Source: a virus. Taken from it: 22,361 bases of DNA. This document shows positions 3,756-22,361 of the stretch, piece after piece. Positions within the stretch are counted from its first letter, which is position 1, and every line of letters starts with the position of its first letter. Both the position numbers and the translations under genes were made by a program. Location of the stretch: IMG/VR virus record IMGVR_UViG_3300030328_000558, positions 1-22,361 of that record, one strand, 5' to 3'. The notes under the pieces are model-generated. The model saw only the letters and a program-made list of their open reading frames with translations. It made no database searches and was not told where the DNA came from.

Positions 3756-6253
3756 GCTTAGTTTCATACAACATTCCTAATCTTGTTCAGGGTGTCAGTC
3801 AGCAACCTGACGCTCAGAGAGATCCATCTCAAGGTGAGATACAGATCAATGGAATGTCCTCAATTGTTGAGGGGTTAAGAAAAAGAGATCCAAGTGAAAC
3901 ATTAGCTCTTGTATCTAACTCGGATTTCGGTGATTGTTTTATCCATGAAGTTCTAAGGGATAACACAGAGGAATATTTAGCAGTTATTACCAGTTCAAGT
4001 ATCAAGGTATTTGACTTAGATGGAGCAGAACAAACCGTCAGCGCTCCAAGTGGATATAGCTACTTAAGCAACGTAACTGATGCGAAATCACAGATAAGAG
4101 CAGTAACAATTGCTGACTATACGTTTGTTACCAATACCCTGAAAGTACCAGCAATGACGAGCGATACCGCTCCAACTGTTGCAAGACCTGCCACAAATGA
4201 AGCCCTAATCTGGGTGAGGGCAGCGACATACGGTCAAACTTACCGAGTTAATGTCAATGGAACAGAAGTCACGGTTACAACAGCAGTTGCCCCAGTCGTT
4301 AGCGATGGAAGCTCGGTTACAGAAAACAGAATCAGTTCCGAGGATATTGCCCAAAATATTATTAACGGGTTTTCATCTTTATCTGGCGTATCTTTTGCTC
4401 GTAGCGGTGCAGTTATACATGTCACTTCATCAAGCGCAATCACAATATCTGTAACCGATGCTCGTAGTGGTGCAGATATAAGTGCAATTTTTGACAAGGT
4501 TCAGGCTTTTACAGAGTTACCAACTGTTGCTCCAACTGGTTATCAAGTAACAATTGAAGGTGATCCAGGAAACTCTTTTGATGATTACCATGTTTCCTTC
4601 CTTCCTAAGAGTGGAACATTTGGAGAAGGTACCTGGAGTGAAACGGTAAAACCTGGAGACAAGTACAAGATCAACAAAGATCTAATGCCTCATCTCTTGA
4701 TCAGGCTTCCTAACGGTACTTTTTACTTTGGCCCTGCTAATGGGACAACACAAAACACAGTAGTAATTCCAACCTGGGGTGAACGGATTTCGGGTGATAC
4801 AACAACTGCTCCAGATCCAAGTTTTATTGGTTATCCAATTAATGACATATTCATCTATAAGAACAGATTAGGTTTCCTTTCAGATGAAAACGTCATTCTT
4901 TCAAGGGTTAGATCGTTCTTTGATTTCTTCCCTGAAACAGTTACAGCAGTTTTAGATACTGATCCAATTGATGTTGTTGCAAGTAATAACCGAGTATCAG
5001 TTCTAAAGTATGCAGTTCCTTATCAGGATGAGTTAATACTTTTTAGTTCACAATATCAGTTTAGATTTAACGCAGCAGAGACAGTTCTTACTCCAGCCAC
5101 AGCGCAGATAACAGTTCTAACTCAGTTTGAAATAGATACAAATGTCAGGCCACAACTGGCAGGCGGTGGTATTATCTTTGCTCAAGCTAACGGTGATTTC
5201 TCACAGTTTAGAGAATTTAGTGTTAGAGGTGCGGGTACGGCATTAACTGCTGATGCACAAGATTTAAGTGGTTATGTCTCCGCTTTTGTGCCAAGTAGTA
5301 TTCACAAAGTAACTGTTAATGATACAAGTAATGCCTTGTTCGCTGTTAGTAATAAGACAGGATTCAAGGATCGTATTTATGTCTATAAGTATTTCGTAAG
5401 AAGCTCAGGAAACAGCGTAGAGAGAGCGCAGTCAAGCTGGTCGTATTGGAATTTTGCAGGAGCAGATGAAATCCTGCAAATCTTATGCGTAAGAGAAACT
5501 TTGTTTTGTCTTGTTCGATATGGCACGAAGATTTATTTAGAGAGAATGCCAGCGCAGGATAGAAGTCCTGAACCTCCTACTGGTTCTCCTTATCCATTGC
5601 TTTTAGATCGAAGAGTTTCTACTGAGACTGAAACTCCTACGGCAATGAGAGTTGCGAATGGAACTTACAACGCTAATACTCAGACAACCACTTGGACTCT
5701 GCCTTATACCGCAGTAGCTACAACACAAGCCTGGAGTGGATTTAGTTCTTCTTCTACTGGTGGAGTTTTACTTTCTACGATTACTTCCGGTACTTCGATG
5801 GTTGCTAGTGGTGATTGGAGGAATAAACCTATTTATTTCGGTGAAGCTTATGAATTTAGATATAGGTTCACCAGGTTCAAACTCTACAAAGAGATTGGAG
5901 GAGGAAAAGCAGCAGCTAATGTTGAACGTACTCAAGTAAGACATGCCAAACTTCGTTATCACGAAACTGCTTACTTTGATATTGAAGTAACTGCGGAGAG
6001 AAGAGATACTTCTACTTACAAATTTGATGGAACAGTTTTAGGAGTTAGGGAATCATTAGTTACAAGTACTTTGCCTGCTGGTGGATATAGCACCGATGAC
6101 GACAGATACAAGGAAGGAGTATTTAATATTCCGATTATGTCCAAAGGAGAAAGGTGTGTTGTTGAGATAAAAAATGATACTGCTCATCCATGTAAATTCT
6201 CTACTTGTGAGTGGGTTGCATTAGTTACAAGAAAGGCAAGTGCATTGAGATGA
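3752..6253 (+). CDS. Tail tubular protein B (T7 gp12-like nozzle)
   Basis: The 833-residue protein should form the hexameric tail nozzle. The N-terminus GVSQQPDAQRDPSQGE...NGMSS..EGLRKRDP (residues 14-47) matches the T7 gp12 start (GISQQPDILRYPDQGS...NGWSS..EGLQKRPP). Downstream there are beta-rich repeats, GDPGNSFDDYHVSF near 270-283, an RLPNGTFYFGP block near 317-327, and YKNRLGFLSDENVILSRVRSFFDFFP near 370-395, a well-conserved part of the family. T7 gp12 is 794 aa; the small excess may lie in the beta-rich segment around residues 150-260. It starts inside the stop of the previous gene and ends inside the start of the next, both as ATGA. Confidence 0.96.
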   Translation: MSLVSYNIPNLVQGVSQQPDAQRDPSQGEIQINGMSSIVEGLRKRDPSETLALVSNSDFGDCFIHEVLRDNTEEYLAVITSSSIKVFDLDGAEQTVSAPSGYSYLSNVTDAKSQIRAVTIADYTFVTNTLKVPAMTSDTAPTVARPATNEALIWVRAATYGQTYRVNVNGTEVTVTTAVAPVVSDGSSVTENRISSEDIAQNIINGFSSLSGVSFARSGAVIHVTSSSAITISVTDARSGADISAIFDKVQAFTELPTVAPTGYQVTIEGDPGNSFDDYHVSFLPKSGTFGEGTWSETVKPGDKYKINKDLMPHLLIRLPNGTFYFGPANGTTQNTVVIPTWGERISGDTTTAPDPSFIGYPINDIFIYKNRLGFLSDENVILSRVRSFFDFFPETVTAVLDTDPIDVVASNNRVSVLKYAVPYQDELILFSSQYQFRFNAAETVLTPATAQITVLTQFEIDTNVRPQLAGGGIIFAQANGDFSQFREFSVRGAGTALTADAQDLSGYVSAFVPSSIHKVTVNDTSNALFAVSNKTGFKDRIYVYKYFVRSSGNSVERAQSSWSYWNFAGADEILQILCVRETLFCLVRYGTKIYLERMPAQDRSPEPPTGSPYPLLLDRRVSTETETPTAMRVANGTYNANTQTTTWTLPYTAVATTQAWSGFSSSSTGGVLLSTITSGTSMVASGDWRNKPIYFGEAYEFRYRFTRFKLYKEIGGGKAAANVERTQVRHAKLRYHETAYFDIEVTAERRDTSTYKFDGTVLGVRESLVTSTLPAGGYSTDDDRYKEGVFNIPIMSKGERCVVEIKNDTAHPCKFSTCEWVALVTRKASALR

Positions 6254-6699
6254 GAATTATTCCTACTCCTACAAATTGTTTTGCAGAGCATATTGCTCTA
6301 CACATGCGAATAGAAGATCAAGAGGAAATAATGCTGAGTCATGGTATAACTCCAGAAGAAGCTATACATTACAGTTATGCTCATAGCGAGATCTGTGGTG
6401 GGATCGAAGGAGACGATGGTATGCCAGTAGGATTAACAGGTGTTACTGGAGATAGAATTTGGATGCTTGGGACAGAAGAAATAGCAGCCACAAAGAATCA
6501 CCGACTACAACTTTGTCTACAGGGTCGTAAGTGGGTAGACTCTTGTTTAGAAAAGGTTGGCAAGCCAATCGGTAATCATGTTTTTTCTAAAAACAAAATG
6601 TCAATTAGATGGCTTAAGTATTTAGGTTTCACGGTTGCAGAACCAGAACCATTTGGCCCATTTAATGCAGAGTTCTGTCAATTCTGGAGGGCTGCATAA
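6250..6699 (+). CDS. gp13-like small internal virion protein, acetyltransferase-like fold
   Basis: The 149-residue protein lies where T7 has gene 13 (138 aa, internal virion protein A). The sequence looks like the GNAT-type acetyltransferase relatives in this family: start RIIPTPTNCFAEHIALHMR, a beta-strand pair around GLTGVTGDRIWMLGTEE (61-77), a helix with RKWVDSCL (93-100), then MSIRWLKYLGF (117-127), which resembles the closing helix and strand of a GNAT domain. A clear acetyl-CoA binding Q/RxxGxG/A loop is not visible, so catalysis is doubtful. I chose ATG 6250, which overlaps the previous stop as ATGA; an in-frame TTG at 6211 would run 40 bases into gene 12. Likely role: a minor virion or assembly protein. 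The family call is moderate and the function is inferred. Confidence 0.75.
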   Translation: MRIIPTPTNCFAEHIALHMRIEDQEEIMLSHGITPEEAIHYSYAHSEICGGIEGDDGMPVGLTGVTGDRIWMLGTEEIAATKNHRLQLCLQGRKWVDSCLEKVGKPIGNHVFSKNKMSIRWLKYLGFTVAEPEPFGPFNAEFCQFWRAA

Positions 6700-7481
6700 T
6701 GGTTGCCATTACTGCTGCTACTGCTGCTTACGCTGCTGGAGGTTCAAGTGTTTTAAGTGGACTTCTTGCGTATCAAGGGAAGAAGCAGGATTACGTTAAT
6801 CAGGTTGCTTACAAGAAAGTTTCTGATGAATTTGCTAGGTGGTCAGCAAGACAACAAGCATCTCAAGCTGACTTAAACAATCAATATAAATTCTGGCAAG
6901 AAAGAATTAATTATGGACAACAACTTGCTTATACAAATCAACTAAGAAACTACGAACTAAGTACAGCTATAGCGAGTGCAGAAGAAGTTGGAAGGGTTAG
7001 ATCGTCTGCTGGTGCGGATTACATGCAAGAAAGTGCCGCATATAACGAGGCATTTAGGCAAGAAGCAATGGCTGATGCTGTTTCTCTTATGCAGTACAAA
7101 GTTCAAGCATTAAAGGCAAAAAGTGCTGTAGCTGCTGGTGCGACTGGTGGTAAATCTATTGACCGTTTGATCAATGATTACAGCCGTCAAGTAGGTGATT
7201 TTGAAACTCTACAAAATATCAATCAAGGATTCAAAGAAAGGCAATACACGAATAAGCAGGCAGGGGCTATTACTAAATACTTAAACCAATACAACAGTCA
7301 ACAGTTCTATCAGCAAAAAGAATATCAAGATCCAATCCAGCCATTTACACCATTACCAACACTTATTTCTGCTGTTCCTCCTTCAATGGTTGGTAGCGCT
7401 CCAAGCTTGGGGGCGGCGATTGTCGGCTCGCTCGCTGGTGGTGTTTCTACTGGTGCTAGTACTTACGCCGCTTTAAAGTAA
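6699..7481 (+). CDS. Internal core/ejected protein gp14-like (internal virion protein B)
   Basis: The 260-residue, Ala- and Gln-rich helical protein corresponds to T7 gp14 (196 aa), an ejected protein placed at the outer membrane of the host. Supporting features: a small-residue hydrophobic N-terminus (residues 2-25), a helical body, and GATGGKSIDRLINDY at 147-161, resembling T7's GSSMDRIKR region. A Gly/Ala-rich hydrophobic stretch at 237-256 could insert in a membrane. It starts at ATG 6699, sharing one base with the previous TAA, and has a clear SD, GGAGG at 6686-6690 with 8-base spacing. Position between gp13- and gp15-like genes is the strongest support. Confidence 0.85.
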   Translation: MVAITAATAAYAAGGSSVLSGLLAYQGKKQDYVNQVAYKKVSDEFARWSARQQASQADLNNQYKFWQERINYGQQLAYTNQLRNYELSTAIASAEEVGRVRSSAGADYMQESAAYNEAFRQEAMADAVSLMQYKVQALKAKSAVAAGATGGKSIDRLINDYSRQVGDFETLQNINQGFKERQYTNKQAGAITKYLNQYNSQQFYQQKEYQDPIQPFTPLPTLISAVPPSMVGSAPSLGAAIVGSLAGGVSTGASTYAALK

Positions 7482-9794
7482 ATGGTCAAAGAACTTCCTA
7501 AGAATCAATTAAAGCCTGCTGCACAGCCAGTATCTAAATTCCTTAGCTTTAGATCACAGCAACCTGGCGCACCAGCGCAGCCTCAAATGGCTCCGCAGGT
7601 AAAAGGAGTCAATATTATTCAGCGTGGAAATGTTCAAAATGTTCAAGGGTATAACAGCTTTACTGAATGGTCGAACGCCATGAAGCAAGTCTCTGGAGCT
7701 ATTAGTTCTGGAGCGCAGGTTTATAAAAGTGTTCAAGAAACTCAAGGCAAGAATCAAGTTGATAAAGCAATTTATAATATTAAAAAGCAGCAGTTAGAAA
7801 GCGGTCAGGAATGGACTGAAACTCAGAAGAAGGTAGCCAAGGATAATCTGGAAGCAGCTTTAATGATGGATCAAGTCAATCCGTTCAGACGGGTTGCAAT
7901 GGAGAAAAGGCTCTCCGAACTTGCTGGTTTAGAAGTTAATAGTGAAATGACTCGGCAGTATAACGCTGTCGCAAAAGACATTATTGGTCTTGATCCAGGA
8001 GATCAAAGAGTTAATGCAATAAAAGCAAAAGTTGTTAATGAGTTGTCTAATAAATATTTATTGAATGAAAGCAGGGCAGGTTTTGTTGATAATTTCCTTC
8101 CTGCTGTAAATGAGAGTTGGCTAAAGATTTCAGATAAACATTTAAAAGCTAATGTCAAATATTTTAAGTACAAACAGAACGCACAAACTCAGGCAAAGTT
8201 ATTCACTACTGCACAAACTTACCTGGAAGCCAACCCAGGGAATTACACAAATTTACCTTCATTATTAGGAGATATTCTTAATCAAGAAGCTATACAGCTT
8301 GGTCTTCCATTGGAGCCTACTGAGTTCAAGAAGGATGTAATTGTTGGCTTGGTTGGGAAAGTTAGAGGAAGTGATATTGGTAATAAAGATCAAATTATTT
8401 CTCAGATTGCAAAGATAGTTATTGGTCAAAAGAAGAATGACAAAGGTGAAACAGAGACAACATACGCTGGCGATTGGTTTGGAACAGAGATGCTTTTAGA
8501 GAATGTAAAAGTATCAAAAGCTAAATATGAGCTAAATAAAAAAGATTTCGAGATTAACAAGCAGGTAGCGATGGATAAGCATGAAGATGCAATTACAGGA
8601 ACAATCAAAGGTAGTCCTGAATATGATGAGGCTGTTGCAGCTTTCATGGCTGATAGTGATGGATTAAGTCAAACAGAGAAAAAATTAGTTTTAAAAGAGA
8701 TAGATGCTAGGGATACAGATATTGCTTTATTTGATTTCAAGGTATCGAGAATTGATGATGTCTATGGGGAATTAGAAAGCACATTAGCTATCAACTACGA
8801 CCCCGCAGAAGCAAGGACAAGGATGCAATCTTTATTTGCTGGAGGAAAAGCAGAGGGATATGGAAAACAAGAATTAGCAGAGCTATATCGGAAAACAATG
8901 AAAGATGTTTCTGATCTAAGCAAGAGGAAACAACAAGAACTTACGAGCGGTACTAACGCCACTGAAGTTAGAACTGCGGTTAAGAGAGTGACAGAAGCAA
9001 AGGTCGGAAGTTTATATCCTGAACAATCGGGGGCGTTGAATCGTGGAATCAAGAAAGATAATCCAGAACTAAAGTTAGATAGGAGAGCTTATAAGGCAAA
9101 TTATGAAACGATAAAAGCTCAAGCTTATGGAGTGATTCAAGATGAGTTTTACAGGATGCTGCAAAGTGCTTTTAGGGATGCACAAGGAAAAGAAGGAAGA
9201 ACAGAGCTAACACCTGAAGAACAAAGCGCAATTATTGCTGATACTCAAAAAGATTTTATTGATAGATTTGACGAGATAACAAAAGACAAATTACCTGAAT
9301 TACCAATAATCAAAGATACAAATTACAAACCACCCGAAGGAGGTAATGCTGAAAATACCAGTAATACCAATACATCTAGCAAACCACAGTATAAAACTTT
9401 TTCAAGAAGTTCTACTGTTCATCCAAAATTTATTGATAACGATGCTTGGAAAGTAGCACCTATTTACGATGAGGCTGATACCAGGAAGATGATTGAACAG
9501 GTCATAAAAAGTAAAAGTTTAAAAGGCTTGCCTACTGCATTTATCAATACAGCGGAAAGAGCAATGCCAAACGGAAATGTAGTTGAATTTCTTTTTGAAC
9601 ATGCAGAAAGACATCATCCAGAAATTGAGATAGATCCTATTCAAAAGAAATTAACTCTACAAAAAATGAATGCGATGACTGGTCTTCAGTCGTCAATAAG
9701 AAAGGCATCTCCTTTAGGTGGGCCTTTGTCTTATTCAACTAATTACATGACTGCTTTGCTTACAGGCGAAGCTCCGATCCTACGATCCTCTTAA
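7482..9794 (+). CDS. Internal core/ejected protein gp15-like (internal virion protein C)
   Basis: The 770-residue protein fits T7 gp15 in size (747 aa) and place. In T7, gp15 and gp16 form the core stack above the portal and are ejected to make a periplasmic channel. The sequence is mostly long charged helices, with a Pro/Gln-rich N-terminus (about residues 10-45) and a polar linker near 620-640 (ENTSNTNTSSK). The C-terminus, near 739-759, has a conserved-looking ASPLGGPLSYSTNYM segment. No catalytic motif is visible. The ATG immediately follows the gp14-like stop (TAAATG) without an SD, so it probably relies on ribosomes finishing the upstream gene. Assignment is mainly by synteny, size and helical composition. 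Confidence 0.82.
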   Translation: MVKELPKNQLKPAAQPVSKFLSFRSQQPGAPAQPQMAPQVKGVNIIQRGNVQNVQGYNSFTEWSNAMKQVSGAISSGAQVYKSVQETQGKNQVDKAIYNIKKQQLESGQEWTETQKKVAKDNLEAALMMDQVNPFRRVAMEKRLSELAGLEVNSEMTRQYNAVAKDIIGLDPGDQRVNAIKAKVVNELSNKYLLNESRAGFVDNFLPAVNESWLKISDKHLKANVKYFKYKQNAQTQAKLFTTAQTYLEANPGNYTNLPSLLGDILNQEAIQLGLPLEPTEFKKDVIVGLVGKVRGSDIGNKDQIISQIAKIVIGQKKNDKGETETTYAGDWFGTEMLLENVKVSKAKYELNKKDFEINKQVAMDKHEDAITGTIKGSPEYDEAVAAFMADSDGLSQTEKKLVLKEIDARDTDIALFDFKVSRIDDVYGELESTLAINYDPAEARTRMQSLFAGGKAEGYGKQELAELYRKTMKDVSDLSKRKQQELTSGTNATEVRTAVKRVTEAKVGSLYPEQSGALNRGIKKDNPELKLDRRAYKANYETIKAQAYGVIQDEFYRMLQSAFRDAQGKEGRTELTPEEQSAIIADTQKDFIDRFDEITKDKLPELPIIKDTNYKPPEGGNAENTSNTNTSSKPQYKTFSRSSTVHPKFIDNDAWKVAPIYDEADTRKMIEQVIKSKSLKGLPTAFINTAERAMPNGNVVEFLFEHAERHHPEIEIDPIQKKLTLQKMNAMTGLQSSIRKASPLGGPLSYSTNYMTALLTGEAPILRSS

Positions 9795-9795
9795 C

Positions 9796-12700
9796 ATGGC
9801 TGACGAATTAATTAATGTAGATCAACCTCAAGATGAGGAAGAGGAAAAGTCTTGGTGGGAATCTATTAACGATAGTGTCATAGTTAAGGGCGCAAAAGTA
9901 TTAGGAGCGGCAGGTGGTCATGTCTCTATAAATGACGCTGAAGAAGTACAAGAAAATAATCCTGAGATGGATTTATATACAGCCGCTTTAATGGCGAATA
10001 AGAATAAATTTGAAGCAGCAGGTGGATACAACCCAATACCAAGATTAAAAAGATTTGGTGGGTGGCTTCAAGAGGAAGGTCAAGACTGGCAAGAGATTAT
10101 GAAGGATAGAGCGGAAGATCCTCATGGCCCATCTGGAGGTGCTTACGGAAAAGTAATTCATTACGCTTCTAATCTTTTCCCTGAACATATTGGCAACACG
10201 ATTGAGCTAGGAACAGCAGGTTTATTATCTGATGCTTATAGAAATGTCGCTGATTTTGCAAACGAAAAAGATCTAGCAGATACGCCCTGGGGCGCTCGTA
10301 TTGACAAGTTTGAAGAGGACATTTACACCAATACGAAGCATAAGCCTCGAAGTGAGATGACTTACGAGGAACGGGTGGGAGATAACGCTAGAGCGCAAAT
10401 GATGCTCAGTTTCTACTTGATGCCATTGCTATCAAGGATGGCTGGAGGAGTGGCAACATCTCAACTTGCTACTAAATACCCGATGTTGGGTCAGGCGATG
10501 AACGCAATGAATCCAGCAATGATTCAAAGAGGAGGCTTTGCTGGATTCTCTGAATTTATGTTGAAGGCTGGTGCTTTAAATATTGCTGAAGGTGTTCCAC
10601 ATACATTGCTTTCAGATAACACTTATGGAAGTTTTGCCTCGTTATTGTTGGGCGAGAAAGATCCTGCATTGGAGGCTGACGGCAATGCGGAAGCAGCATT
10701 GAAATCAATAGTTCCAAATGCAATTGGAGATACGTTGATGTTTTTTGGAATGAAGGGTTCAGGTGCGGTTTTAGAAGGCGGAGCAAAAAGAGTTTCTCCA
10801 CTGATTGCCGATACTTTTAAAAACGTAACTAGATCTAAAATTGCAAATTCATTTAAAAGGAATAGAAACAAAGTTGTAAGGAGACAAATTGACTCAGGTA
10901 TTATTGAAATAGATGAGAACGGGAAAGGTGCTTTTGGAGCCACTTACAAACAAGATGGCGATGTAAATTTAAACGCACCAGAAACAACAGAGATAGAAGA
11001 AGCCTTATCTAATTTTGCTTCTTACGATGACAAGATTCAAATAAGAGATTCAGAAGGAAGTGTCCCAGAATCTATTGAAACTTTATTAAACAGACCCAAC
11101 GAAATTCCAGATCAAGTTTATAGATATGAAGATGTCTCTGCTCCTATCGGTTCTTATCCAACAGCAGATACTTTATGGTCAAATCAGTTAGGGAAAGTAC
11201 CAACAAAGAATTTAATATCTTTAGCTGATCCAAATAACAGTCCAGCTTTTGCAGACAGACTTTTAGATATTTCTGGTAAAGATTATTCTCAAGCAACAAG
11301 AGCAGACATTGTTGAAGTCGTTAAATCGTTTGAGGCTGAAGGTAAGGTTTTGATGCCTAACCGTTTAATGGGAGGAAAGATTCTTAGAAGTGATGAGATC
11401 AATGTCAACCCTGAAGTATTCCAATTCAAAGGAAATGTAGATCCTGAATCTGGAGTTGTTTTAGGTGATGATTCTTTAGCAGGTGTTGAAAGGTATAACC
11501 CAACAATGGAAGGGACTTTAAAAGTCTGGGAGGATAACGAAGGTGGTTATAACTTGGTTGATGGTCATAACAGATTTGGTTTAGGTCAAAAGTTAGGCAT
11601 ACCTTCTTATCGAGTTGAAGTTTTAGATTCGATGACACCAGAAGGCGCAAGATCGCAAGGCGCTTTAGCAAATATCTCAGGAGGAAAAGGAACTGGAGTT
11701 GATGCAGCTAATTTCTTTAAAAATGAAGGGATCACAAGTCCAGATCAATTATCAGGATTAGGTGTTCCTCTTAGTTCAGGGACAGCCACCAAAGGTTTAG
11801 CTTTAAGTAAATTGCCAGACAATATTTTCAGGGATGTCGTTGAAGGAAATATTACTGAGTTAAAGGGGGCAGCTATTGGAGGCAGCGGTCTAGATGAAAA
11901 CGCAATGCAGCAGGCTTATAAGATTTTAAAAGATACAGAACTAACCGAATCACAATTAAGAGAAGTTCTACTCCAGGCGAAGAACGCTCCTACTGTTGAT
12001 GGCCAGGTGGATCTTTTTGGTAATACTGAACAACTTAATTTGATGATTGAGAAGGCAAAGCTTGCCTCTGCAATTAATAGAACAATTTCAAAAGATAAGA
12101 ATTTATTTAGTCGTGTTGGCTCAAATGTTGAGAGACTTAAAACCGCTGGTACAGATGTTGATGTTTCCGAGGCTGCTAATCAAAGAGCTATAGCAGAGCA
12201 GCTAAGTACACAATTTAATGCTGACAAGTATGCGGAATCAGAAGTCAGCAAGATCTTGAACGAAGGAGCGATAATGCTGTCAGAAGGTGGAAAGACAGGG
12301 CCAGTTTCAAGAAAAATATATCCAAGAATTGTTAAAGCAATTACTGAAGATCCAACAATTCCTGTGAAAGCTCCTGAAGCAGAGCAAACAGTTATGGCAA
12401 GAAAGATGCCAACTGATGATGAATTAACTGATGAGATATTGAAGAAAGCAATTAAGAATGGAGAAGCAAGACCTCCTTCAACTCCTGACTTTGAAATACC
12501 AGAAGATACTGGATTGTCTTATTCAAAAGTGCTTGATGATTTAGCAGAAGGAAAAATTAGTGAAGAGATTGGTTCTTTAGTTGAGGCAGAGCAAAACGCT
12601 GCTCGTCAATTTGGAAAGATAGATGATGCGATGGAAGCAGATCGAATTGCGACAAAAAGAGATGCGGCTGGATATGACTCAATGACGTTTAAAGAGAAGA

Positions 12701-14289
12701 AAAACAATGGTTTGCTGAGTACAAAATTAAAAGAGAATTTAAAGAAAGTAGCCGAATCAGATGCAAGAACTTTAAGAGAGACAGATGAATTGCTTGGGCC
12801 TACAAAGAAAGAGCCTTTTAATATGCAATCACTTAAAGACGCAAGAGCAACTAAGAAAAGAAATCCTAGATACACATACTTTTCTCTCCCTCCTGGATTC
12901 AATAAAATGAAGCCTAGATATGGGCAGTTAACACCAGTCTTCGAGTCGGATCTGGATCAGGTTGCTTACATTATTAGAAGTGGAAAGAAAGCTTCAGTTA
13001 GAGAACCAGAGATACTTAAGATTGTTGAAGAATATGGATTAACGCCAGCAGAAGTAAAACGTCATGGAATGAAAGTTCATGCAAAGATAAAAGAGATGGT
13101 TAAAGAGAAAACTGGCAGTGCTTCTGCTTCTCCTGATAACACAACAGGATTAGAATTAACAGTTCCAAATCAAGATTTCTGGGGAGGGGGTGACGGGAAA
13201 ATAAGAGGAGCTTTTAATCCTAGTGAGTATGGATTCTTAGATAACGATTTCACTGGCGGGAAATATAACGAGGCTGCTACCAGGAAGTCGATGATGTGGA
13301 ATGAGGCGTTAAAACAAAAGAATGAGGCGAAGAAATTACAAGATTGGGGTAGAAGGATAGCTGACAGCAGTAAAGATGTATTACGACAAAGTAGAGACGA
13401 TGCTGAAGCGCTTGTAGAGGGAATGAAAGAGGCTTCAAAGATTGCAGGTATTCCCGTTGAAAATATAAAAATCGTTGACGAAATAGATGCTATTGAAATG
13501 TTTGGTTTAGACGCTACTGCTGGAGCAGTTTCAAAATGGGATCCTCAAAGAGCGACCTTTATGATTCGTAATCCTAAAGATCCTCTGACTCATAAGACTG
13601 GCGGTGAATTCTTAGGACTAAACCTGAAGTCGGAGACTGAGAAGGTGATGGATGGTTCGATATATCTTTCTCTGTATCCAGCCATTCAGAACCGTTACAA
13701 AGGTTTAGCTTCAGGTGTTTTAGAAACTGGAAGACCTTTCCGACAAGTGCTTTACCATGAGGCATTTCATTCTGTTCAGGATTGGTTAGATCTTAGAGGA
13801 AACAAAAAGCTTTTAGGAGCATTAGAAGCACCAACTGCAATAAAAGAAATGATGGATATTATCACTGACAACAGAGGAACCTTTGTAAAAAATATGACTA
13901 ACAAAGAAATACAGGCAGAATCTTTTGGTTGGTGGCTTAACAATCGGAGAGTGAAACTTAAGGATGGAGGATTAAAAGGGGCGTTTGAAAGACTGAAAAT
14001 GTATCTCAGTACTTTCGGTAGAAAATTAAAGCAAAGGTTGAGTAAGAATCCAACTTATATAGATATTTTTGAGTTAGCAGCCAGTGGAGATATAGCGAGA
14101 AAAACGATGGTTCAGAAACTAACGCCAGAGCAAATAGCTTCTTATGTAGGTCGTATTGATGCTGACACTCATCGTTATATACCTGAACTAACTGAAAGAG
14201 TAAATCAATTTCTGTTCTTTAAAAAAATAGAATTCGATGAAGCCATGAACAGATGGGACATCGAAGCCAACTCAGGAGGATGCCTCTAA
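9796..14289 (+). CDS. Giant gp16-position ejected protein with ParB/ddrB-like and HExxH metallopeptidase motifs
   Basis: This 1497-residue protein starts one base after gp15. Seen in order: an acidic N-terminus; a Gly/Ala/Met-rich helical part at about 190-330, possibly membrane-seeking; a ParB/ddrB-like region (about 510-645) with LVDGHNRFGLG at 587-597 and ANISGGKGTGVDAANFF at 625-641; long charged helices; a segment near 1055-1110 (PRYGQLTPVFESDLDQVAYI) resembling associated domains of large phage polyvalent proteins; then a zincin-like domain with HEAFH at 1321-1325 and a candidate third zinc ligand in KEIQAES (E1371 or E1375). I see no lytic transglycosylase, which in T7 gp16 is N-terminal. 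Known: ddrB-type ParB and metallopeptidase domains occur in polyvalent proteins delivered with phage or conjugative DNA. Inferred: it is packaged in the core, ejected, and acts in the host or on the cell wall. Domain calls come from motifs only. Confidence 0.72.
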   Translation: MADELINVDQPQDEEEEKSWWESINDSVIVKGAKVLGAAGGHVSINDAEEVQENNPEMDLYTAALMANKNKFEAAGGYNPIPRLKRFGGWLQEEGQDWQEIMKDRAEDPHGPSGGAYGKVIHYASNLFPEHIGNTIELGTAGLLSDAYRNVADFANEKDLADTPWGARIDKFEEDIYTNTKHKPRSEMTYEERVGDNARAQMMLSFYLMPLLSRMAGGVATSQLATKYPMLGQAMNAMNPAMIQRGGFAGFSEFMLKAGALNIAEGVPHTLLSDNTYGSFASLLLGEKDPALEADGNAEAALKSIVPNAIGDTLMFFGMKGSGAVLEGGAKRVSPLIADTFKNVTRSKIANSFKRNRNKVVRRQIDSGIIEIDENGKGAFGATYKQDGDVNLNAPETTEIEEALSNFASYDDKIQIRDSEGSVPESIETLLNRPNEIPDQVYRYEDVSAPIGSYPTADTLWSNQLGKVPTKNLISLADPNNSPAFADRLLDISGKDYSQATRADIVEVVKSFEAEGKVLMPNRLMGGKILRSDEINVNPEVFQFKGNVDPESGVVLGDDSLAGVERYNPTMEGTLKVWEDNEGGYNLVDGHNRFGLGQKLGIPSYRVEVLDSMTPEGARSQGALANISGGKGTGVDAANFFKNEGITSPDQLSGLGVPLSSGTATKGLALSKLPDNIFRDVVEGNITELKGAAIGGSGLDENAMQQAYKILKDTELTESQLREVLLQAKNAPTVDGQVDLFGNTEQLNLMIEKAKLASAINRTISKDKNLFSRVGSNVERLKTAGTDVDVSEAANQRAIAEQLSTQFNADKYAESEVSKILNEGAIMLSEGGKTGPVSRKIYPRIVKAITEDPTIPVKAPEAEQTVMARKMPTDDELTDEILKKAIKNGEARPPSTPDFEIPEDTGLSYSKVLDDLAEGKISEEIGSLVEAEQNAARQFGKIDDAMEADRIATKRDAAGYDSMTFKEKKNNGLLSTKLKENLKKVAESDARTLRETDELLGPTKKEPFNMQSLKDARATKKRNPRYTYFSLPPGFNKMKPRYGQLTPVFESDLDQVAYIIRSGKKASVREPEILKIVEEYGLTPAEVKRHGMKVHAKIKEMVKEKTGSASASPDNTTGLELTVPNQDFWGGGDGKIRGAFNPSEYGFLDNDFTGGKYNEAATRKSMMWNEALKQKNEAKKLQDWGRRIADSSKDVLRQSRDDAEALVEGMKEASKIAGIPVENIKIVDEIDAIEMFGLDATAGAVSKWDPQRATFMIRNPKDPLTHKTGGEFLGLNLKSETEKVMDGSIYLSLYPAIQNRYKGLASGVLETGRPFRQVLYHEAFHSVQDWLDLRGNKKLLGALEAPTAIKEMMDIITDNRGTFVKNMTNKEIQAESFGWWLNNRRVKLKDGGLKGAFERLKMYLSTFGRKLKQRLSKNPTYIDIFELAASGDIARKTMVQKLTPEQIASYVGRIDADTHRYIPELTERVNQFLFFKKIEFDEAMNRWDIEANSGGCL
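14274..14279 (+). promoter_or_regulatory. Consensus Shine-Dalgarno that decides the start of the second large core gene
   Basis: AGGAGG lies 9 bases before ATG 14289, within the end of the preceding gene. Two other in-frame ATGs exist. That at 14253 lies upstream of the SD, and that at 14280 touches it, so 14289 is the supported start. It is one of the few full SD sequences in the window. Confidence 0.7.
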
Positions 14290-17200
14290 TGTCTACATGT
14301 GATGATCTATTCCAAAAGCGTCAGTCTTTATTAGCTGAACAGAAAAAGAACAACGAGGACATTGCTCGCATTGAGTCGATAAGAGCTTCAGTGGATTTCC
14401 CTGAAGAATCAAGGTGGCAAGACATTAGAGATAAGCTTGCTAAATACATGGAGGATCAGCAGGCAGCGAAGAGAATTAGAGAAGCAATGGATGATCCTAA
14501 GAAGAAAGGGTATTCATCTATTCCTACAGATCAGCCGCTTAACTTTGTCCAAAAGATGAGGACAAATCCTGATGAAATGGTGGTTGATATAGCGAATGTA
14601 GCTCAAGCATTTTTAAAGGCTGGAAAGGAAGGGACTCCAGAGCAATATGCTTTTTTAAAGGCTGATCCTTACGAGGCTGCTAAACATATTTCATCAACAA
14701 TGAATACTGCAAGGACTCCAACGGAAGTCCTGAATATGTTGTCTGATTTGCAAGCAGTACCAAATAGCACTCAAGATCTTTTAGAGAAAACATTGAGAGC
14801 AAGATGGTTTAACGAGAAAGGTAGAGAGGCGTTTATAGATACTTTCTATGAAGTAGAGAACTTCATGGAGGCGAATCCAAACAAAGAAGTTCCAATGGAA
14901 ATGTTGGAGAAGATGTGGAACACAGAAAAGATTGCTTTCTGGTCTGAGTCTGCATACGACTTCTATAGAAACCAATGGCACAAGCAAGGTAAGGCGATGC
15001 AAGGGGATATGTTTAGCGATGATGTTTTGGAGTTAATGGATGATGCAAAAGCCGTTAATCCAGATAATTATCCTGATCCTGTTTCTTATGCCAATTCATT
15101 AGGAATACTTGATAAAACATTAGACGATGTAAGTCCTGAAACTGATGCAACAGCAAGGGTATGGCAAGCAGCAGCAGATAATGTAACTAGACCAAAAGAA
15201 GCAACCGAGCAATTAGCTCTTGAAATTGCCAATATCAAGATTCAAGGTGTTGATCCACAAAAAAGAAGGCCTATCGGCAGGGAAGAAATACGAAACAAGA
15301 AACTACGAATAACAAATTTATTAGCTAAAGATCATCAATTATTTAATTTAAGAACGATTGGGCTTGCTGTTCAGTCCAATAGTGTTATGGCAATTTATGG
15401 GCCATATCATACGTTCTTGAGAAATAGTATTTATAGACCTTACGGAACAAGTTTGCAGGAAGGTATTTTTGAAGCTTTTGAAGCGAATTGGAAAGGTTTA
15501 CGCCAAGGGTTTAAAGCATTAAAGGAAGGAGGTATCGCAACGATGAATGATACTTACAAAGGAAAGTCTTCTTTCTATGCGTCTAATGTTGAAACCTATG
15601 GAAAGTTTAATGACAGTGTTTTAGAGAGAAAGCAAGACCTGGAGTTCTTGTTGTCGCCAGATAAACCCAGTGGAATGAAGGACACAATTCAATGGGCGGT
15701 TAATCCAGAAAGAGCGTTTAGATATACACATGCTGCACATCGTCTATGGCTATATAAAAAGACTGGAAATCCAATGACATTAAGGCCAGGCTTTACTGCT
15801 TTATCTGCGGCTGATGGCCCTGCTGGATTGTTTTATACGAACTTTAAATTAAGAACTGAGTATGAAATGAAAGCAAGAAGAGAAGGAGTTCAGCGTGAAT
15901 TGAAAGAGGTGTTAGAAAGGGAGCCAAATCAGAAAGATATTGATAATTGGGTTAACGAAAGAATGGAAGAGGCTTTCTATAAAGAAGATCCAACTGAAGC
16001 ACAGATCCAGGCATACAGAAAAGAACAAAACATCCCAGAAGGAGTGATGAGTGATGATGCTGTCGCTGATGAGATCGTGGAGACAAGAGTAAGAGATAAC
16101 TATTCAGGGCCAGTACCTTTGATGGATGACGATGTAGTAAGAGAAGCTTCTGAATTTTCTGCTCGTAATAGGTTCCAATCAGTACCCCAGGAAGGGAATT
16201 ACTTGAAAGGTGCATACGAAGGAATGAATAAGTTAAGAAAAAATCAGCCCTATGCAGATATAGCTGTTCCTTATTTGCAAGCTCCTGTCGCTGGTGTTTC
16301 GCTTGATGGACGATTAATAGGTGCTGGTGTTGTTAATGATTTTGTGACTGGAAGACTAGGAAAAATGACTCGCAAACAAAGAGCAGGATCAATGGCTGAC
16401 TTGCTTATCGCTTCTCAGGTTTGGGGTCTTTTCCTTCTTGCTGATAGTCAAGGACAAATAGAAGGCAATGGGCCAATAGATCAAAAAGAAAGAGCTATGT
16501 GGAGAGCAGATTTAAAGAGACAAGGAAAACGACCTAATACTATTTATGGGATTCCTTTGGTTGGTGGTTTGCCTGTCGCTAGTGTGATGTTCCTGTTGCA
16601 TGATGCGAATAAGGCTTGGGCTTTGCAAGCAAGATCGGCGCATGATGATATTGAATATACAGATGCTATTTGGACAGTTTTGGTTGGTCATATTCAAAGG
16701 AATACAGGTGTAGGTCAATTAGGTCAGATAATGGAAATTATGACCAATGCCGATTTCAATATTGCTAATCCTGTTAGTAAAGCGAGGTCATTAGCTGGAT
16801 ATATTGGCGCTGGTCGTACTCCTGGTATTGGCTTAACTAGACAAGCGGAAAGAGTGACAGATAGCAGTAAATATAATTTCTATAGAGATTCAGATGTGAA
16901 GTCTTACGAGGCAGAGTTATTTACAGAAGAGCAAACAAGCAAAGCAATGCAATACATAAAGGATGTTGTTGCACTTGGAAGAAATGCAGGATTTGATGTC
17001 ACTGGATTAACGGGAGTTTTGCCAGGCGGAAGCAGAAAGAATAAGGATTGGCTGGGTACGAATATTAGTTATCCCTGGGGAACGAGAATTAAAGATTTCT
17101 TGTTCAACAGGCATGAACCAGCGTTGCATCCAAAAGATAAGGTTTACGCAGAACTTAAACAGCTTGGTCTTTTAATTGCTCCACCAGTTCTCTATGACAA

Positions 17201-17792
17201 AAAGCTAGATGGTGTTCCAATGGATGATGATATGCAGAAGGTATATAACGAGATATATGGATCTATCGGCCCTGGTCTACAACCAATAGACGGAAAGATT
17301 GTTGATAAGTTACCAAGTGAGGCGATGGAAAAACAAACTTTTAAATATGCTAAATACGACGATTCTGATCTTGACTTCAAATATACAGATGGAGAATACG
17401 AGAAAGATAGAAGTGATTTCCAGGAAATTGATTTGTTAGAGATAATGGACGAGCATGTAATAGATAGCAGCGGCAAAGGTCGTAAATTCATAGATGCAGC
17501 TAGATCAATCATCAATAGTCCTAGATACCAAAAATATCAAAACAATCCAAATACAACGACTGATTTTGGTGTTGCCGATCATCCTCCACACAAGAGAGAG
17601 GAGCAATATGCAATGAAAATAATGAGATCTCTTAGAAGATATTACGGAATACTTGCAGCAGATTCTTTTAGAATGTCAGATCATCCAGCGGCAGATGTTT
17701 ACAGGAACTTCAAAAACAATGAACAGGTAAAAACTAATTTTGAAGCAGACTTGTCAGGAGAGAGTGTTGAGGGAATAGAAGATTCTCTATAG
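14289..17792 (+). CDS. Second giant gp16-position internal virion protein
   Basis: The 1167-residue protein starts in the TAATG overlap with the previous gene. Seen: an N-terminal coiled-coil-like stretch (5-60); charged helices to about 330; a region near 360-500 with YGPYHTFLRNSIYRPYG and NPERAFRYTHAAHRLWLY; a conserved-looking block near 640-760, PYADIAVPYLQAP, a hydrophobic helix at 702-718 (MADLLIASQVWGLFLLA), then GQIEGNGPIDQKER and IYGIPLVGG; and an acidic C-terminus. From memory, this layout (PF..TP, hydrophobic helix, G.I.G.GP, R, G.rP.SI) recurs at the C-terminus of very large virion or polyvalent proteins of marine phages. No enzyme motif was found. It may supply the gp16 structural/channel part while the upstream gene carries the enzymatic domains; T7 does both in one 1318-aa gp16. 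A single split gene versus two distinct proteins cannot be decided here. Its stop codon overlaps a promoter-like sequence. Confidence 0.75.
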   Translation: MSTCDDLFQKRQSLLAEQKKNNEDIARIESIRASVDFPEESRWQDIRDKLAKYMEDQQAAKRIREAMDDPKKKGYSSIPTDQPLNFVQKMRTNPDEMVVDIANVAQAFLKAGKEGTPEQYAFLKADPYEAAKHISSTMNTARTPTEVLNMLSDLQAVPNSTQDLLEKTLRARWFNEKGREAFIDTFYEVENFMEANPNKEVPMEMLEKMWNTEKIAFWSESAYDFYRNQWHKQGKAMQGDMFSDDVLELMDDAKAVNPDNYPDPVSYANSLGILDKTLDDVSPETDATARVWQAAADNVTRPKEATEQLALEIANIKIQGVDPQKRRPIGREEIRNKKLRITNLLAKDHQLFNLRTIGLAVQSNSVMAIYGPYHTFLRNSIYRPYGTSLQEGIFEAFEANWKGLRQGFKALKEGGIATMNDTYKGKSSFYASNVETYGKFNDSVLERKQDLEFLLSPDKPSGMKDTIQWAVNPERAFRYTHAAHRLWLYKKTGNPMTLRPGFTALSAADGPAGLFYTNFKLRTEYEMKARREGVQRELKEVLEREPNQKDIDNWVNERMEEAFYKEDPTEAQIQAYRKEQNIPEGVMSDDAVADEIVETRVRDNYSGPVPLMDDDVVREASEFSARNRFQSVPQEGNYLKGAYEGMNKLRKNQPYADIAVPYLQAPVAGVSLDGRLIGAGVVNDFVTGRLGKMTRKQRAGSMADLLIASQVWGLFLLADSQGQIEGNGPIDQKERAMWRADLKRQGKRPNTIYGIPLVGGLPVASVMFLLHDANKAWALQARSAHDDIEYTDAIWTVLVGHIQRNTGVGQLGQIMEIMTNADFNIANPVSKARSLAGYIGAGRTPGIGLTRQAERVTDSSKYNFYRDSDVKSYEAELFTEEQTSKAMQYIKDVVALGRNAGFDVTGLTGVLPGGSRKNKDWLGTNISYPWGTRIKDFLFNRHEPALHPKDKVYAELKQLGLLIAPPVLYDKKLDGVPMDDDMQKVYNEIYGSIGPGLQPIDGKIVDKLPSEAMEKQTFKYAKYDDSDLDFKYTDGEYEKDRSDFQEIDLLEIMDEHVIDSSGKGRKFIDAARSIINSPRYQKYQNNPNTTTDFGVADHPPHKREEQYAMKIMRSLRRYYGILAADSFRMSDHPAADVYRNFKNNEQVKTNFEADLSGESVEGIEDSL

Positions 17793-17859: not shown

Positions 17860-20800
17860 ATGGCCCAGTCTTATGTAACCTTCACAGGGAATGGGTCTTC
17901 CACTGGCCCTATCACTCTTGGATTTAACTATATCCTTAAGGCTCACGTAAAGGTTTACGAAGGAAGGGATATTCTTGCTAACACCGGAACATTAAAATCA
18001 GAGACTACTCATTACACCTTTAATGGTGCAGGTACTCAAATTTCACTGGTTACTGCTCCTGCTAATGGAGTAATAATCACGATAGAAAGACAGACACCAA
18101 ATGATGATCAGATTGTTCCTTATGCAGATGGTTCAAACTTAATTGCAGATTCGTTAAATAACTCAGATAAACAGACTCTTTTTTGTACCCAGGAATTAGA
18201 AGACCGCCAGGCGCTAAGTGCTGCTAAGGCTGATGCTGCTAAGACTGCTTCTGATACTGCGACTAGCAATGTAACTACATTGACAGGTACACAGTTCAAG
18301 ACTGATGGAAGTGTGCCTATGACAGGCAACATTAATGCAAACAGCAATAAAGTTGTTAATCTTGCTGATCCGACTAGCGCACAAGATGCAGTTACAAAAG
18401 CGTACCTGGAGCGCACTGGAAGCATTACAACGACACAGATTTCTGATGGCACAATTACCAATACAGATATAAATGCGAGTGCAGCAATATCAGGATCGAA
18501 GTTACAAGCTTCTTCTGGGTCTAACGCAGGAAGCATGTCTTCTGCTCATTACACCAAAATAGAAGGAATAGAAGCTTCGGCCACTGCTGATCAATCAGCC
18601 ACGGAAATAAAGAGTTCATACGAATCTAATTCAGATACCAACGCTTACACAGACGCAGAGAAAACAAAGCTCTCTGGAATTGAAACCAGCGCAACCGCCG
18701 ATCAATCTGCTAGTGAAATCAAGTCGTCTTACGAAAGTAATAGCAATACCAATGCTTTCACTGATGCGAATAAAACTTTAGTTGATGCGATTTCCGCAAC
18801 TGCTACAGAAATTAATTACACAACGAATGTCACTTCTGATATTCAGAGTCAGATCAATAACAAGCAACCACTGGCTAATCAGCTAAACACCCTTACAGGG
18901 ATGGTTCAGGCAACGGCCAGTAAATTAGCTGAAAATCAAACTTTAACGGCTGATATTAATGATCTTAACCAGATTGATGGACTAACAAAACAAGATGGTA
19001 CTAATTTATCTGACACAGATAGTTCTTTCCCTACCTCTAAAGCTGTAGTTAATTATGTCGCTGCACAGCTTGCACCTATTGGCGGTCTTGAAGTTGTAGC
19101 TACTGAGGTTGCTTTCCCTAATACTCAGCCTGCATCTGGTGTAGTTATTTCGATTAGTGATGCCGGTGGAGTTGTTGTTAATGGATCAGGAGTTAGTACG
19201 ACAGGTCGAACATCTGGTGGTGCAACAGTAACGATTAATGGTTTTCCTTCCAGTCTTCAAGGAGAAACCTTAGTTGCTGGTGTTGGCTTAATGGTCAGTT
19301 CTACCGGCTCTAGCCAAACTTATAATTACCATAAGATCCTTGGAAAAGAAGATGATATTAAACAATTATCAGATGATATAAATAATTTCAACGAAAGGTA
19401 TCGTGTAGAGAATACATTACCTGCTGCTAATAGTTCAACGAACCATGATGGTGATTTGGTCTGGGCTAAAGATGTTGGAAAGATGTATGTCTACAGTGGA
19501 GATTATGATGGTACTCCAGTAGGAAGTTTTGGTGAAGTTCAATCCATTGGTAATTTCTATATATCAACTTTAAGTCCTGCGTTTAATGGCACCCTTCAAG
19601 ATTTCACAATTACAAATGCACCTTCTAGTGCAGAACAAATCCTTTTAAGTATTAATGGTGTTCTTCAACGTCCAAACGCAGGTAATTCCACACCGTCAGA
19701 AGGGTTTGCGTTAAGTGGAAGCACAGTAAAGCTTGCTGCTGCACCAGCTAGTACAGATACCCACTTCGCAGTTGTTCTTGGATCAACGGTCAATATTGGA
19801 ACTCCAAGTGACAACACAGTAGATACAGACATATTGATGAGTGGAGCCGTAACAGGAGATAAGATAGCAACTAACTTAGATCTAGTAGATAATAAGAAAA
19901 TTCGTTTTGGGACAGGTAATGATTTAGAAATTTTTCATAATGCTAATGATGGAATTATTAAAGAAACAGAGAGGGATTTATTCCTAGTTAATACGGTAGC
20001 AAACGGTCAGATAATACAGAAAACTGATGGTAATTGGTTAGTCTCAAATCAAAACCAAAATGAATATAGAATTAAAGCCTTTAATAACGGAGCCGTTGAA
20101 CTCTATTACGACAACAGTAAGAAGCTTGAGACGACTAGCACGGGTACGAAGATAACTGGACATTTATTTATTGATAACGCAGGTGACGATGGTTTATATA
20201 TTGGCGATGCTACTGGTAGTAACACTTATATTGATATAGATTCAGCAGCAAATCGAAGAGCAGTTCTTAGATTTAGGTCAGCCGGAACAACAAAATGGGC
20301 GATGGGTCGTGGTGATTCAGATGATCTTAGTGCAGATTCCTTCTTTATAGGCGTTGGTAATAGTGGTGGAGGGAGTAGTGATGCAAAATTCACGCTTACA
20401 AATACAGGTAACGCTACTTTTGTAGGAGATGTAGATTTAGCTGATAGTAAAAAGTTAAAACTCGGAGATAGTGATGATCTACAGATCTACCATGATGGAT
20501 CTAATTCATATATAGATAATGCTACTGGTAATTTATATATAAGGTCTGGTGGTAATCATATAGTTCTTAGAGCAAAGGATGATGAACAAAGTATTCAATG
20601 TGATCCTAATGGTGCTGTACAACTCTTTTACGACAATAGTAAGAAGTTTGAGACTGCTTCAAACGGAATTAGTATCCCTATTACTGCAGCACAGGATGGT
20701 ATAAGACTTACTGCTTCTGGTGCCCACTATGCAGCCTTATATGCAGATATTAATAGAACTGGTGCAGACGAAAATCTATTAAATATTCGTGCAGCCTGGG

Positions 20801-21712: not shown

Positions 21713-22361
21713 ATGGCACTCACTAAAATTGACGATAGAGGTGTTACCTATCCTCTAGATTTATTAGACAACGAGCAGATTCGTTTCGGGACAGGGAATG
21801 ATTTAGTTATATCTCACAATGGATCTAATTCTTTCATAGAAGAGTCAGGGACAGGTGCCCTCTATGTAGATTCAAATCATATTATTTTCAGGAAACAAGG
21901 TACAGCTGAGGTTCTATCTCAGTTTATTGGGGATGGAGCCGTTGAACTTTATTACGACAACGTTAAGATGTTTGCTACGACTTCGACAGGTGTTTTAATA
22001 GATGGAAGTAATACAACTGGTTCAGAAGTTCGAGGAGATTTTAGATTTAAATCGGAATCGAGTGGTGTATCAAAAGTTATATGGGATGGTAGTCTTGATA
22101 TGATGCGATGGCAGGATACATATAAAGCTACATTTGGAACAGGATCGGATCTACAAATCTACCATAATGGAACATCCAGTCTTATAGATAATAATACAGG
22201 TCATTTATACATCAGAAATAATGTTAATGATGATGACGGATCTAATATTTATATTGAAGCTAAAGCAGGTGAACAAAGTGCTATCTTTACCCATGATGCT
22301 GGTGTAGAGCTTCGATATGACAACGCTAAGAAGTTTGAGACAAATGCTGGTGGAATATTAG
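21713..22361 (+). CDS. Second tail-fibre-type protein, 3'-truncated by window edge
   Basis: The frame opens at ATG 21713 (MALTKIDDRGVTYPLD) and runs to the window end, 216 codons without a stop. It repeats the shaft module of the preceding fibre: IRFGTGNDLVISHNGSNS near 23-40, GAVELYYDNVKMF.TTSTG near 75-93, then FGTGSDLQIYHNGTSS near 140-155 and GVELRYDNAKKFET near 197-210. It lacks the T7 gp17 attachment domain, so it is more likely a distal fibre, a subunit attached to the first fibre, or an alternative tip protein than a stand-alone T7-type fibre. No SD precedes it (ATTCACAACA). The C-terminal, receptor-binding end is outside the window. Confidence 0.85.
   Translation, partial: MALTKIDDRGVTYPLDLLDNEQIRFGTGNDLVISHNGSNSFIEESGTGALYVDSNHIIFRKQGTAEVLSQFIGDGAVELYYDNVKMFATTSTGVLIDGSNTTGSEVRGDFRFKSESSGVSKVIWDGSLDMMRWQDTYKATFGTGSDLQIYHNGTSSLIDNNTGHLYIRNNVNDDDGSNIYIEAKAGEQSAIFTHDAGVELRYDNAKKFETNAGGIL

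What the first reader, a model, noticed from the sequence alone, without database searches (positions are those of the whole stretch)
9796..14289. Core protein at the gp16 position carries a ParB/ddrB-like domain and an HExxH metallopeptidase
Residues 587-641 show LVDGHNRF...followed 28 residues later by ANISGGKGTGVDAANFF, the pattern of ddrB-type ParB domains. Residues 1321-1375 show HEAFH plus a downstream KE..AES. In polyvalent proteins such domains are delivered with the DNA to counter host functions. Placing them in a T7-type ejected core protein implies that the phage injects a protease and a DNA- or nucleotide-acting domain together with its genome. This would be an entry-effector role beyond a channel.
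Basis: partly seen in the sequence, partly recalled or inferred. Interest (0 to 1): 0.75.

Follow-up and report, generated by a model that had tools for sequence, protein, structure and literature searches.

The report
Likely phage injection protein, swappable enzymes
In marine phages related to T7, the big gene next to the DNA-injection proteins encodes a ParB-like DNA/nucleotide-binding domain plus an intact zinc-protease domain; the protease is inserted or missing even between nearly identical phages, which suggests these phages carry exchangeable enzymes into the cell with their DNA (delivery itself not yet shown).

Summary
Residues 518-734 are predicted (pLDDT 92) to have the fold of ParB/Noc: the CTPase-type N domain plus the helix-turn-helix domain. 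Nucleotide-site residues (Q543, K545, GHNR 590-593, N626) are invariant or nearly so in relatives. It is not ddrB-type: the ddrB-ParB profile, the comparison with P1 DdrB and the ddrB-specific extra helix all fail. Residues ~1155-1432 are a zincin: HExxH is kept in 36/36 homologous domains and the third ligand is E1371 (34/34), not the Glu of 'AES'. Best fold matches are lethal factor and PPEP-1. The gene always sits between a gp15-like gene and a constant-length (about 1150 aa) neighbour, but neither is detectably T7 gp16. New here: the zincin behaves as a swappable cassette (at least 5 changes on a tree of 33). Two phages 97-99% identical in flanking DNA differ by a 924-bp zincin insert and a second swapped domain. 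Best reading: a polyvalent, probably ejected protein with constant parts and a cargo bay. Virion presence, ejection and catalysis are untested. Describers of the related P-SCSP1 phages could not annotate the gene.

The parts
9796..14289 (+). Polyvalent core ORF, 1497 aa, between gp15-like and the 'next' ORF
   Evidence: order gp15-core-next-fibre with median gaps 4/3/32 bp in relatives
9796..11346 (+). N-terminal conserved region, aa 1-517; one weak hydrophobic segment at aa 202-220
   Evidence: invariant columns in 23 cores; hydropathy
11347..11685 (+). ParB-CTPase-type N domain, aa ~518-630
   Evidence: AF2 pLDDT 92; Foldseek Noc 7nfu E 1.3e-5; VIA Z 9-10
11563..11574 (+). Box II (P motif, GxxR) = GHNR, aa 590-593
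   Evidence: G590, H591, R593 52/52 (partly a retrieval condition) and 25/25 in the set without that bias
11686..11997 (+). ParB/Noc-type helix-turn-helix (DNA-binding) domain, aa ~631-734
   Evidence: 7nfu_A aligned over model 14-228, 4umk 128-227, 6y93 127-230
11998..12345 (+). Helical extension of the ParB region, aa 735-850
   Evidence: AF2 secondary structure; conserved in 52 relatives
12346..12879 (+). Charged linker, aa 851-1028; cassette site 1 in relatives
   Evidence: sequence; L035/L039 swap at this place
12880..13179 (+). Module A3, aa 1029-1128: uncharacterised domain of large phage proteins, also in P-SCSP2, which lacks ParB and zincin
13258..14091 (+). Zincin-type metallopeptidase domain, aa ~1155-1432; cassette site 2
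   Evidence: AF2 pLDDT 81; all top VIA rows are lethal factor/PPEP zincins, Z 5-6.2; N4 vRNAP zincin E 1.4e-4
13756..13770 (+). HEAFH active-site helix, aa 1321-1325
   Evidence: 36/36 homologous domains keep HExxH; in helix 301-320 of the model
13906..13908 (+). E1371, predicted third zinc ligand
   Evidence: 34/34; in helix 355-368 of the model
14092..14286 (+). C-terminal tail; its terminal Gly-Cys is encoded across the Shine-Dalgarno of the next ORF
14274..14279 (+). AGGAGG Shine-Dalgarno for the next ORF (ATG at 14289 overlaps the core stop, TAATG)
   Evidence: read from sequence; conserved in most of 21 relatives shown
14289..17792 (+). 'Next' ORF, 1167 aa from the likely start: constant-length neighbour with two membrane-like segments; better gp16-like candidate by length and topology
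   Evidence: no sequence match to T7 gp16
7482..9794 (+). gp15-position ORF, 770 aa
   Evidence: position and size; homologues in relatives
6699..7481 (+). gp14-like ORF, 260 aa
   Evidence: PF24072 T7_gp14 E 6.9e-6, just under cut-off

Best explanation
The ORF encodes a polyvalent internal virion (ejection) protein of a clade of T7-like marine podoviruses. Its N-terminal region and ParB-like domain pair (nucleotide-binding N domain plus HTH) are the most constant parts within this clade. The half after the ParB region, around module A3, is a cargo bay into which enzyme domains are swapped; in this phage the cargo is an active-site-intact zincin. Most likely the protein leaves the head with gp14/gp15-like proteins, threads unfolded into the cell and refolds there. 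The ParB part, sensing cytosolic NTP, then holds or clamps the entering DNA, and the zincin cuts a host protein during the first minutes. Shown here: domain folds by prediction, conserved active sites, gene order and cassette swapping. Inferred: packaging, ejection, nucleotide binding, the clamp role, and the protease activity and its target.
For: ParB fold: Foldseek's 15 hits at E<=0.001 are all ParB or Noc, VIA up to Z 10.6. Nucleotide-site residues conserved. Zincin: HExxH 36/36 and E1371 34/34, both in predicted helices, every VIA row with Z>=5 is a lethal factor or PPEP zincin, relation to the N4 vRNAP zincin, whose carrier is an ejected protein (PMC12633501). Position: next to gp15-like and 'next' ORFs throughout the clade (43/43 for 'next'). 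Another A3-bearing giant protein matches phrog_6651 'internal virion protein' E 4.6e-31. Cargo behaviour: zincin state changes 6 times on the ParB tree, at least 5 forced; near-identical phages L035/L039 differ by a 924-bp zincin insert and a swapped upstream cassette; core length 1120-2633 aa against 1123-1180 for the neighbour.
Against: No proteomics, no ejection data and no catalytic assay. Foldseek alone finds no significant PDB match for the zincin model; VIA Z 6 is middling. No sequence match to T7 gp16. Neither PF02195 nor PF18763 detects the ParB domain. P-SCSP2-type phages lack the ParB domain too, so ParB is constant only within this clade. L035/L039 are metagenomic assemblies, so a chimera cannot be excluded.
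Confidence: 0.6

Rival explanations
1. The zincin is a processing enzyme: it cuts the polypeptide itself (in the head, or after entry) to release the ParB part and other cargo, as proposed for P1 DdrB and N4-like polyvalent proteins.
For: Proposed role of polyvalent MPTases (PMC5512222). The zincin sits at the C-terminal end after a charged linker. In L039 and L025 it co-occurs with an upstream ART-like cassette.
Against: At least 9 complete T7-like relatives keep ParB and the tail but lack any zincin, including L035, nearly identical to L039, so processing by this domain is not required. In the window the zincin is the only recognisable cargo. N4 vRNAP is packaged unprocessed (PMC5512222).
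Confidence: 0.25
2. The protein is not in the virion: it is a late intracellular enzyme whose ParB part binds or segregates phage DNA and whose protease degrades host proteins during replication.
For: No virion data exist; canonical ParB proteins work inside the cell (PMC12704722).
Against: Invariable place between gp15-like and 'next' ORFs, with 3-4 bp gaps. Related HExxH and DdrB proteins are packaged (PMC5512222, PMC12633501). The P-SCSP1 authors also guessed that genes of this block are internal virion proteins (PMC9860041). No ParA-like gene among the window's ORFs.
Confidence: 0.12
3. The ParB and zincin folds are catalytically dead structural fillers of a core protein.
For: Folds can persist without activity; the GERR of canonical ParB is GHNR here.
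Against: Every active-site residue is invariant while the surroundings are 16-48% identical; the zincin is inserted or lost as a unit, without degenerate copies found.
Confidence: 0.05

Closest known systems
Hypothetical protein BAQ94395 (UniProt A0A6S4PA15) of uncultured phage MedDCM-OCT-S31-C1 (Nohivirus)
   Same: Same gene slot, same order ParB - A3 - zincin (HESWH); 28-43% identity by segment
   Different: Only an automatic name ('large polyvalent protein associated domain-containing'); no domain study found in the papers searched
Prochlorococcus phage P-SCSP1u 2563-aa ORF (gene PSCSP1u_00023)
   Same: ParB (28%), A3 and HESFH zincin in the same order and slot
   Different: About 1240 further residues after the zincin, with an ART-like motif by eye; published as not annotatable (PMC9860041)
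P1 DdrB (DdrB-like ParB + C-terminal MPTase)
   Same: A ParB-superfamily domain followed by a C-terminal HExxH domain in one phage protein; packaged after processing (PMC5512222)
   Different: ParB family differs, no extra Tyr helix here; P1 is a myovirus and ddrB is not in an ejection-protein block
N4 virion RNA polymerase (gp50), C1 HExxH domain
   Same: Giant ejected podovirus protein with an HExxH domain; profile match at the active-site strand and helix, E 1.4e-4
   Different: Carries an RNA polymerase, no ParB; Schitoviridae, not T7-like
T7 gp16 ejection protein
   Same: Similar size and gene neighbourhood; gp16-C binds and is proposed to clamp incoming DNA (PMC8954989)
   Different: No sequence relation found, no transglycosylase domain found; two ORFs fill the slot here

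Membership tests
DdrB-like ParB (PF18763) | Match to the family profile or to a DdrB alignment | tested here: not met
   P1 scores 5.9e-42, none of 15 relative records at E<=10; hhalign against 6 DdrB-type ParBs P 0.19; the DdrB set is small
DdrB-like ParB (PF18763) | Extra helix with conserved Tyr between the GxxR helix and the next strand (PMC5512222) | tested here: not met
   Model: helix 87-96 runs straight into strand 100-106; the DdrB set has a longer stretch with conserved Tyr there
DdrB-like ParB (PF18763) | Asp/Asn at the end of strand 2 and pocket Arg | tested here: met
   N/D589 52/52 and R593 52/52; not specific to DdrB
ParB-CTPase fold superfamily (ParB/Noc/Srx) | Fold of the N domain | tested here: met
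   Foldseek E 1.3e-5, probability 1.00; VIA Z 9-10
ParB-CTPase fold superfamily (ParB/Noc/Srx) | Box II P motif GxxR | tested here: met
   GHNR invariant at G, H and R
Canonical ParB/Noc | HTH domain after the N domain | tested here: met
   Aligned to model 127-230
Canonical ParB/Noc | PF02195 sequence match | tested here: not met
   Silent in 16 records while the control genomes ring
Canonical ParB/Noc | CTP binding and ParA partner | not testable with these tools
   CTP binding needs an assay; no ParA-like ORF in the 22-kb window, but the genome is incomplete
Zincin-like metallopeptidase of polyvalent proteins | HExxH on a helix plus Glu on a second helix | tested here: met
   36/36 and 34/34; positions in model helices
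Zincin-like metallopeptidase of polyvalent proteins | Zincin fold | tested here: met
   VIA: rows with Z>=5 are all lethal factor or PPEP-1/Zmp1, best Z 6.2 rmsd 5.9 over 197 aa; Foldseek alone not significant
Polyvalent proteins (Iyer et al. 2017) | Two or more biochemically unrelated domains in one mobile-element protein | tested here: met
   ParB-type plus zincin in one ORF
Polyvalent proteins (Iyer et al. 2017) | Delivered together with the DNA | not testable with these tools
   Needs proteomics and ejection assays
T7 gp16 ejection protein | Sequence homology to gp16 | tested here: not met
   hhalign probability <1% for core and neighbour
T7 gp16 ejection protein | Place after gp14 and gp15, before the fibre | tested here: met
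   but shared with the next ORF

The most novel reading that the evidence does not exclude
A ParB-type, nucleotide-switched DNA clamp has been built into the ejectosome of an ocean T7-like lineage. It would hold the entering genome, gated by cytosolic NTP (a counterpart of the gp16-C clamp), and share one polypeptide with a cargo bay through which these phages trade injected enzymes (zincin, ART-like and other cassettes), much as polymorphic toxins trade tips.
Probability: 0.25. Interest if true: 0.85.

Novelty: new variant of a known kind. Interest (0 to 1): 0.62.

Why it matters
Ejection proteins of T7-like phages are usually described as a channel with at most a wall-cutting enzyme. Here a constant ParB-bearing part and a swappable enzyme site in one probable ejection protein suggest that marine phages deliver, and quickly exchange, host-directed enzymes with their genome. 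L035/L039 are a natural presence/absence pair. The finding gives predicted domains to a gene that the describers of the MPP-C cyanophages could not annotate, and cultured phages exist (P-SCSP1 group on Prochlorococcus MED4) in which proteomics and assays are possible.

Tried and rejected
Single-sequence scan of viral contigs with the whole protein found nothing; domain alignments did. Sequence searches of the PDB with the single protein and with profiles found no ParB or zincin. Pfam and NCBIfam scans: no family on this ORF; Pfam on relatives and on alignment members gave only chance-level hits. ddrB type rejected. T7 gp16 homology of core and neighbour not found. The invariant C-terminal Gly-Cys looked like a protein signal, but it is encoded across the AGGAGG Shine-Dalgarno of the next ORF. 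phrog_21's label 'portal protein' is misleading: the match is the ParB region. P1 DdrB's MPTase shows no significant profile match to this zincin beyond the aligned HE..H. Foldseek PDB search with the A3+zincin model gave no significant hit. An ART domain in L039/P-SCSP1u is by eye only; Pfam does not find it.

Full report
WHAT WAS CHECKED. The window is a 22.4-kb IMG/VR virus record with a T7-like structural block: portal end, scaffold, capsid (PF21703), tail tube (PF17212), nozzle (PF25675), a 162-aa ORF, a gp14-like ORF (PF24072, marginal), a gp15-position ORF, the 1497-aa ORF of the finding, a further ORF of about 1170 aa, and a fibre with a T7 N-terminal domain. All quoted motifs are at the stated residues. 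By residue shuffling, HExxH alone would occur in 1% of such proteins, HExxH followed by ExxA at 30-70 residues in 0.3%, and the GHNR-type motif in none of 5000.

RELATIVES. tblastn in annotated phages finds the protein in uncultured phage S31-C1, the Prochlorococcus P-SCSP1 phages, P-SCSP2 (module A3 only) and Dunaliella 'virus' SI2 (ParB only). Two viral-contig scans, one with the ParB region and one with module A3, gave 160 loci. In those with T7-like neighbours the order gp15-like / this ORF / next ORF / fibre is kept, with median gaps of 4, 3 and 32 bp, and the next ORF directly adjacent in 43 of 43. The core ORF varies from 1120 to 2633 aa while the neighbour stays at 1123-1180 aa.

PARB DOMAIN. 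A 52-sequence alignment gave an AlphaFold model of residues 505-850 with mean pLDDT 92. Foldseek's 15 matches at E<=0.001 are all ParB or Noc (best Noc 7nfu, 1.3e-5), and VIA-align places both the CTPase-type N domain and the HTH domain (7nfu_A Z 9.7, rmsd 4.8, 200 aa). Q543, K545, G590, H591 and R593 are invariant and N626 nearly so; this holds in relatives retrieved with module A3 rather than with the ParB motif (25/25), which matters because the first scan used the GHxR motif as a search pattern. The GxxR box is the P motif that contacts phosphate in ParB-type proteins (PMC12704722). It is not ddrB-type: PF18763 recognises P1 (5.9e-42) but none of 15 relative records, hhalign against a P1-type set is negative, and the diagnostic Tyr-bearing extra helix described in PMC5512222 is missing from the model. 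PF02195 is silent as well, so the assignment rests on fold plus site conservation.

ZINCIN DOMAIN. Residues 1015-1497 were modelled from 24 sequences (pLDDT 81). The model places HEAFH in one helix and E1371 at the start of a later one. Foldseek alone is not significant, but in VIA-align all rows with Z>=5 are lethal factor or PPEP-1/Zmp1 zincins. Across homologous domains HExxH is 36/36 and E1371 34/34. The profile aligns with the N4 virion-polymerase HExxH domain, E 1.4e-4 with the HExxH in register, above shuffled controls; N4 vRNAP is an ejected protein (PMC12633501). The same fold family was reported for polyvalent MPTases (PMC5512222).

CARGO BEHAVIOUR. On a tree of 33 ParB domains from T7-like cores, presence of the zincin needs six changes, at least five forced by strongly supported branches. 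The clearest case is L035 against L039: their DNA is 98.6% identical over 6.5 kb upstream and 96.5% over 4.3 kb downstream, yet L039 has a 924-bp zincin insert that L035 lacks, and the cassette between ParB and A3 is different (an ART-like motif by eye in L039, a helical-looking cassette in L035 whose relative lies N-terminal of ParB in L128). Zincin-lacking proteins keep the same C-terminal tail. P-SCSP2-type proteins keep A3 but have neither ParB nor zincin, so ParB itself is constant only within this clade. Natural loss of the zincin argues that it is not needed for assembly or for obligatory processing.

IS IT gp16? By place, partly: two ORFs fill the slot. By sequence, no: hhalign against six T7-type gp16 proteins is negative for both. 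The neighbour has two strongly hydrophobic segments and the core only a weak one, and gp16 homologues are described as membrane-spanning (PMC8954989), so the neighbour is the better gp16-like candidate and the core may be an added, dedicated cargo protein. One A3-bearing giant protein from another phage group matches a PHROG named internal virion protein (E 4.6e-31).

MECHANISM AND LITERATURE. T7 gp16-C binds DNA and is thought to clamp the genome at about 850 bp on entry (PMC8954989). A nucleotide-switched ParB clamp in the same machine is an attractive but unproven counterpart. The describers of the MPP-C cyanophages guessed that genes of this block are internal virion proteins but could not annotate them (PMC9860041), and UniProt names the S31-C1 protein only automatically. 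The idea of polyvalent injected proteins is therefore known. The ParB+HTH plus zincin composition in a T7-like ejection block, with cassette exchange between near-identical phages, was not found described in the papers searched.

LIMITS. Everything is prediction and comparison. Packaging, ejection, NTP binding and proteolysis are untested. The viral contigs are metagenomic assemblies, and the second zincin HMM was built from HExxH-bearing members, so rare degenerate copies could be under-counted; the third-ligand Glu was not part of any selection.

Noticed in passing
L035 7417-11958 vs L039 5842-11094: Near-identical phages whose core genes differ by a swapped cassette and a zincin insert; L039 cassette 1 (8952-9580) has an ART-like HG...GNGLYST motif by eye.
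   Followed up: partly
window 14274-14289: The core's conserved C-terminal Gly-Cys is encoded across the AGGAGG Shine-Dalgarno of the next ORF, whose ATG overlaps the stop (TAATG).
   Followed up: yes
window 12880-13179; L137-L167: Module A3 recurs in giant proteins (2000-4400 aa) of phages without T7-like neighbours; no Pfam name found, and one carrier (L161) matches phrog_6651 'internal virion protein'.
   Followed up: partly
L002 12624-20315 (P-SCSP1u): Residues after the zincin include an ART-like stretch (RKGT...GQAVYFTTD) and further unassigned regions.
   Followed up: no
L128 433-627 aa: The cassette of L035 reappears N-terminal of the ParB domain in L128, so cassettes also change place within the protein.
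   Followed up: no
window 6211-6699: 162-aa ORF between nozzle and gp14-like ORF sits at the T7 gp13 position and, by eye, resembles a GNAT fold.
   Followed up: no
window 17860-21648: Tail fibre with T7-type N-terminus and a C1q-like C-terminus (E 6.6e-5); a second fibre-like ORF starts at 21713.
   Followed up: no
L190, L191: Relatives lie on contigs binned with Sphingomonadaceae and Cyanobium genomes, a weak hint of host range in the clade.
   Followed up: no
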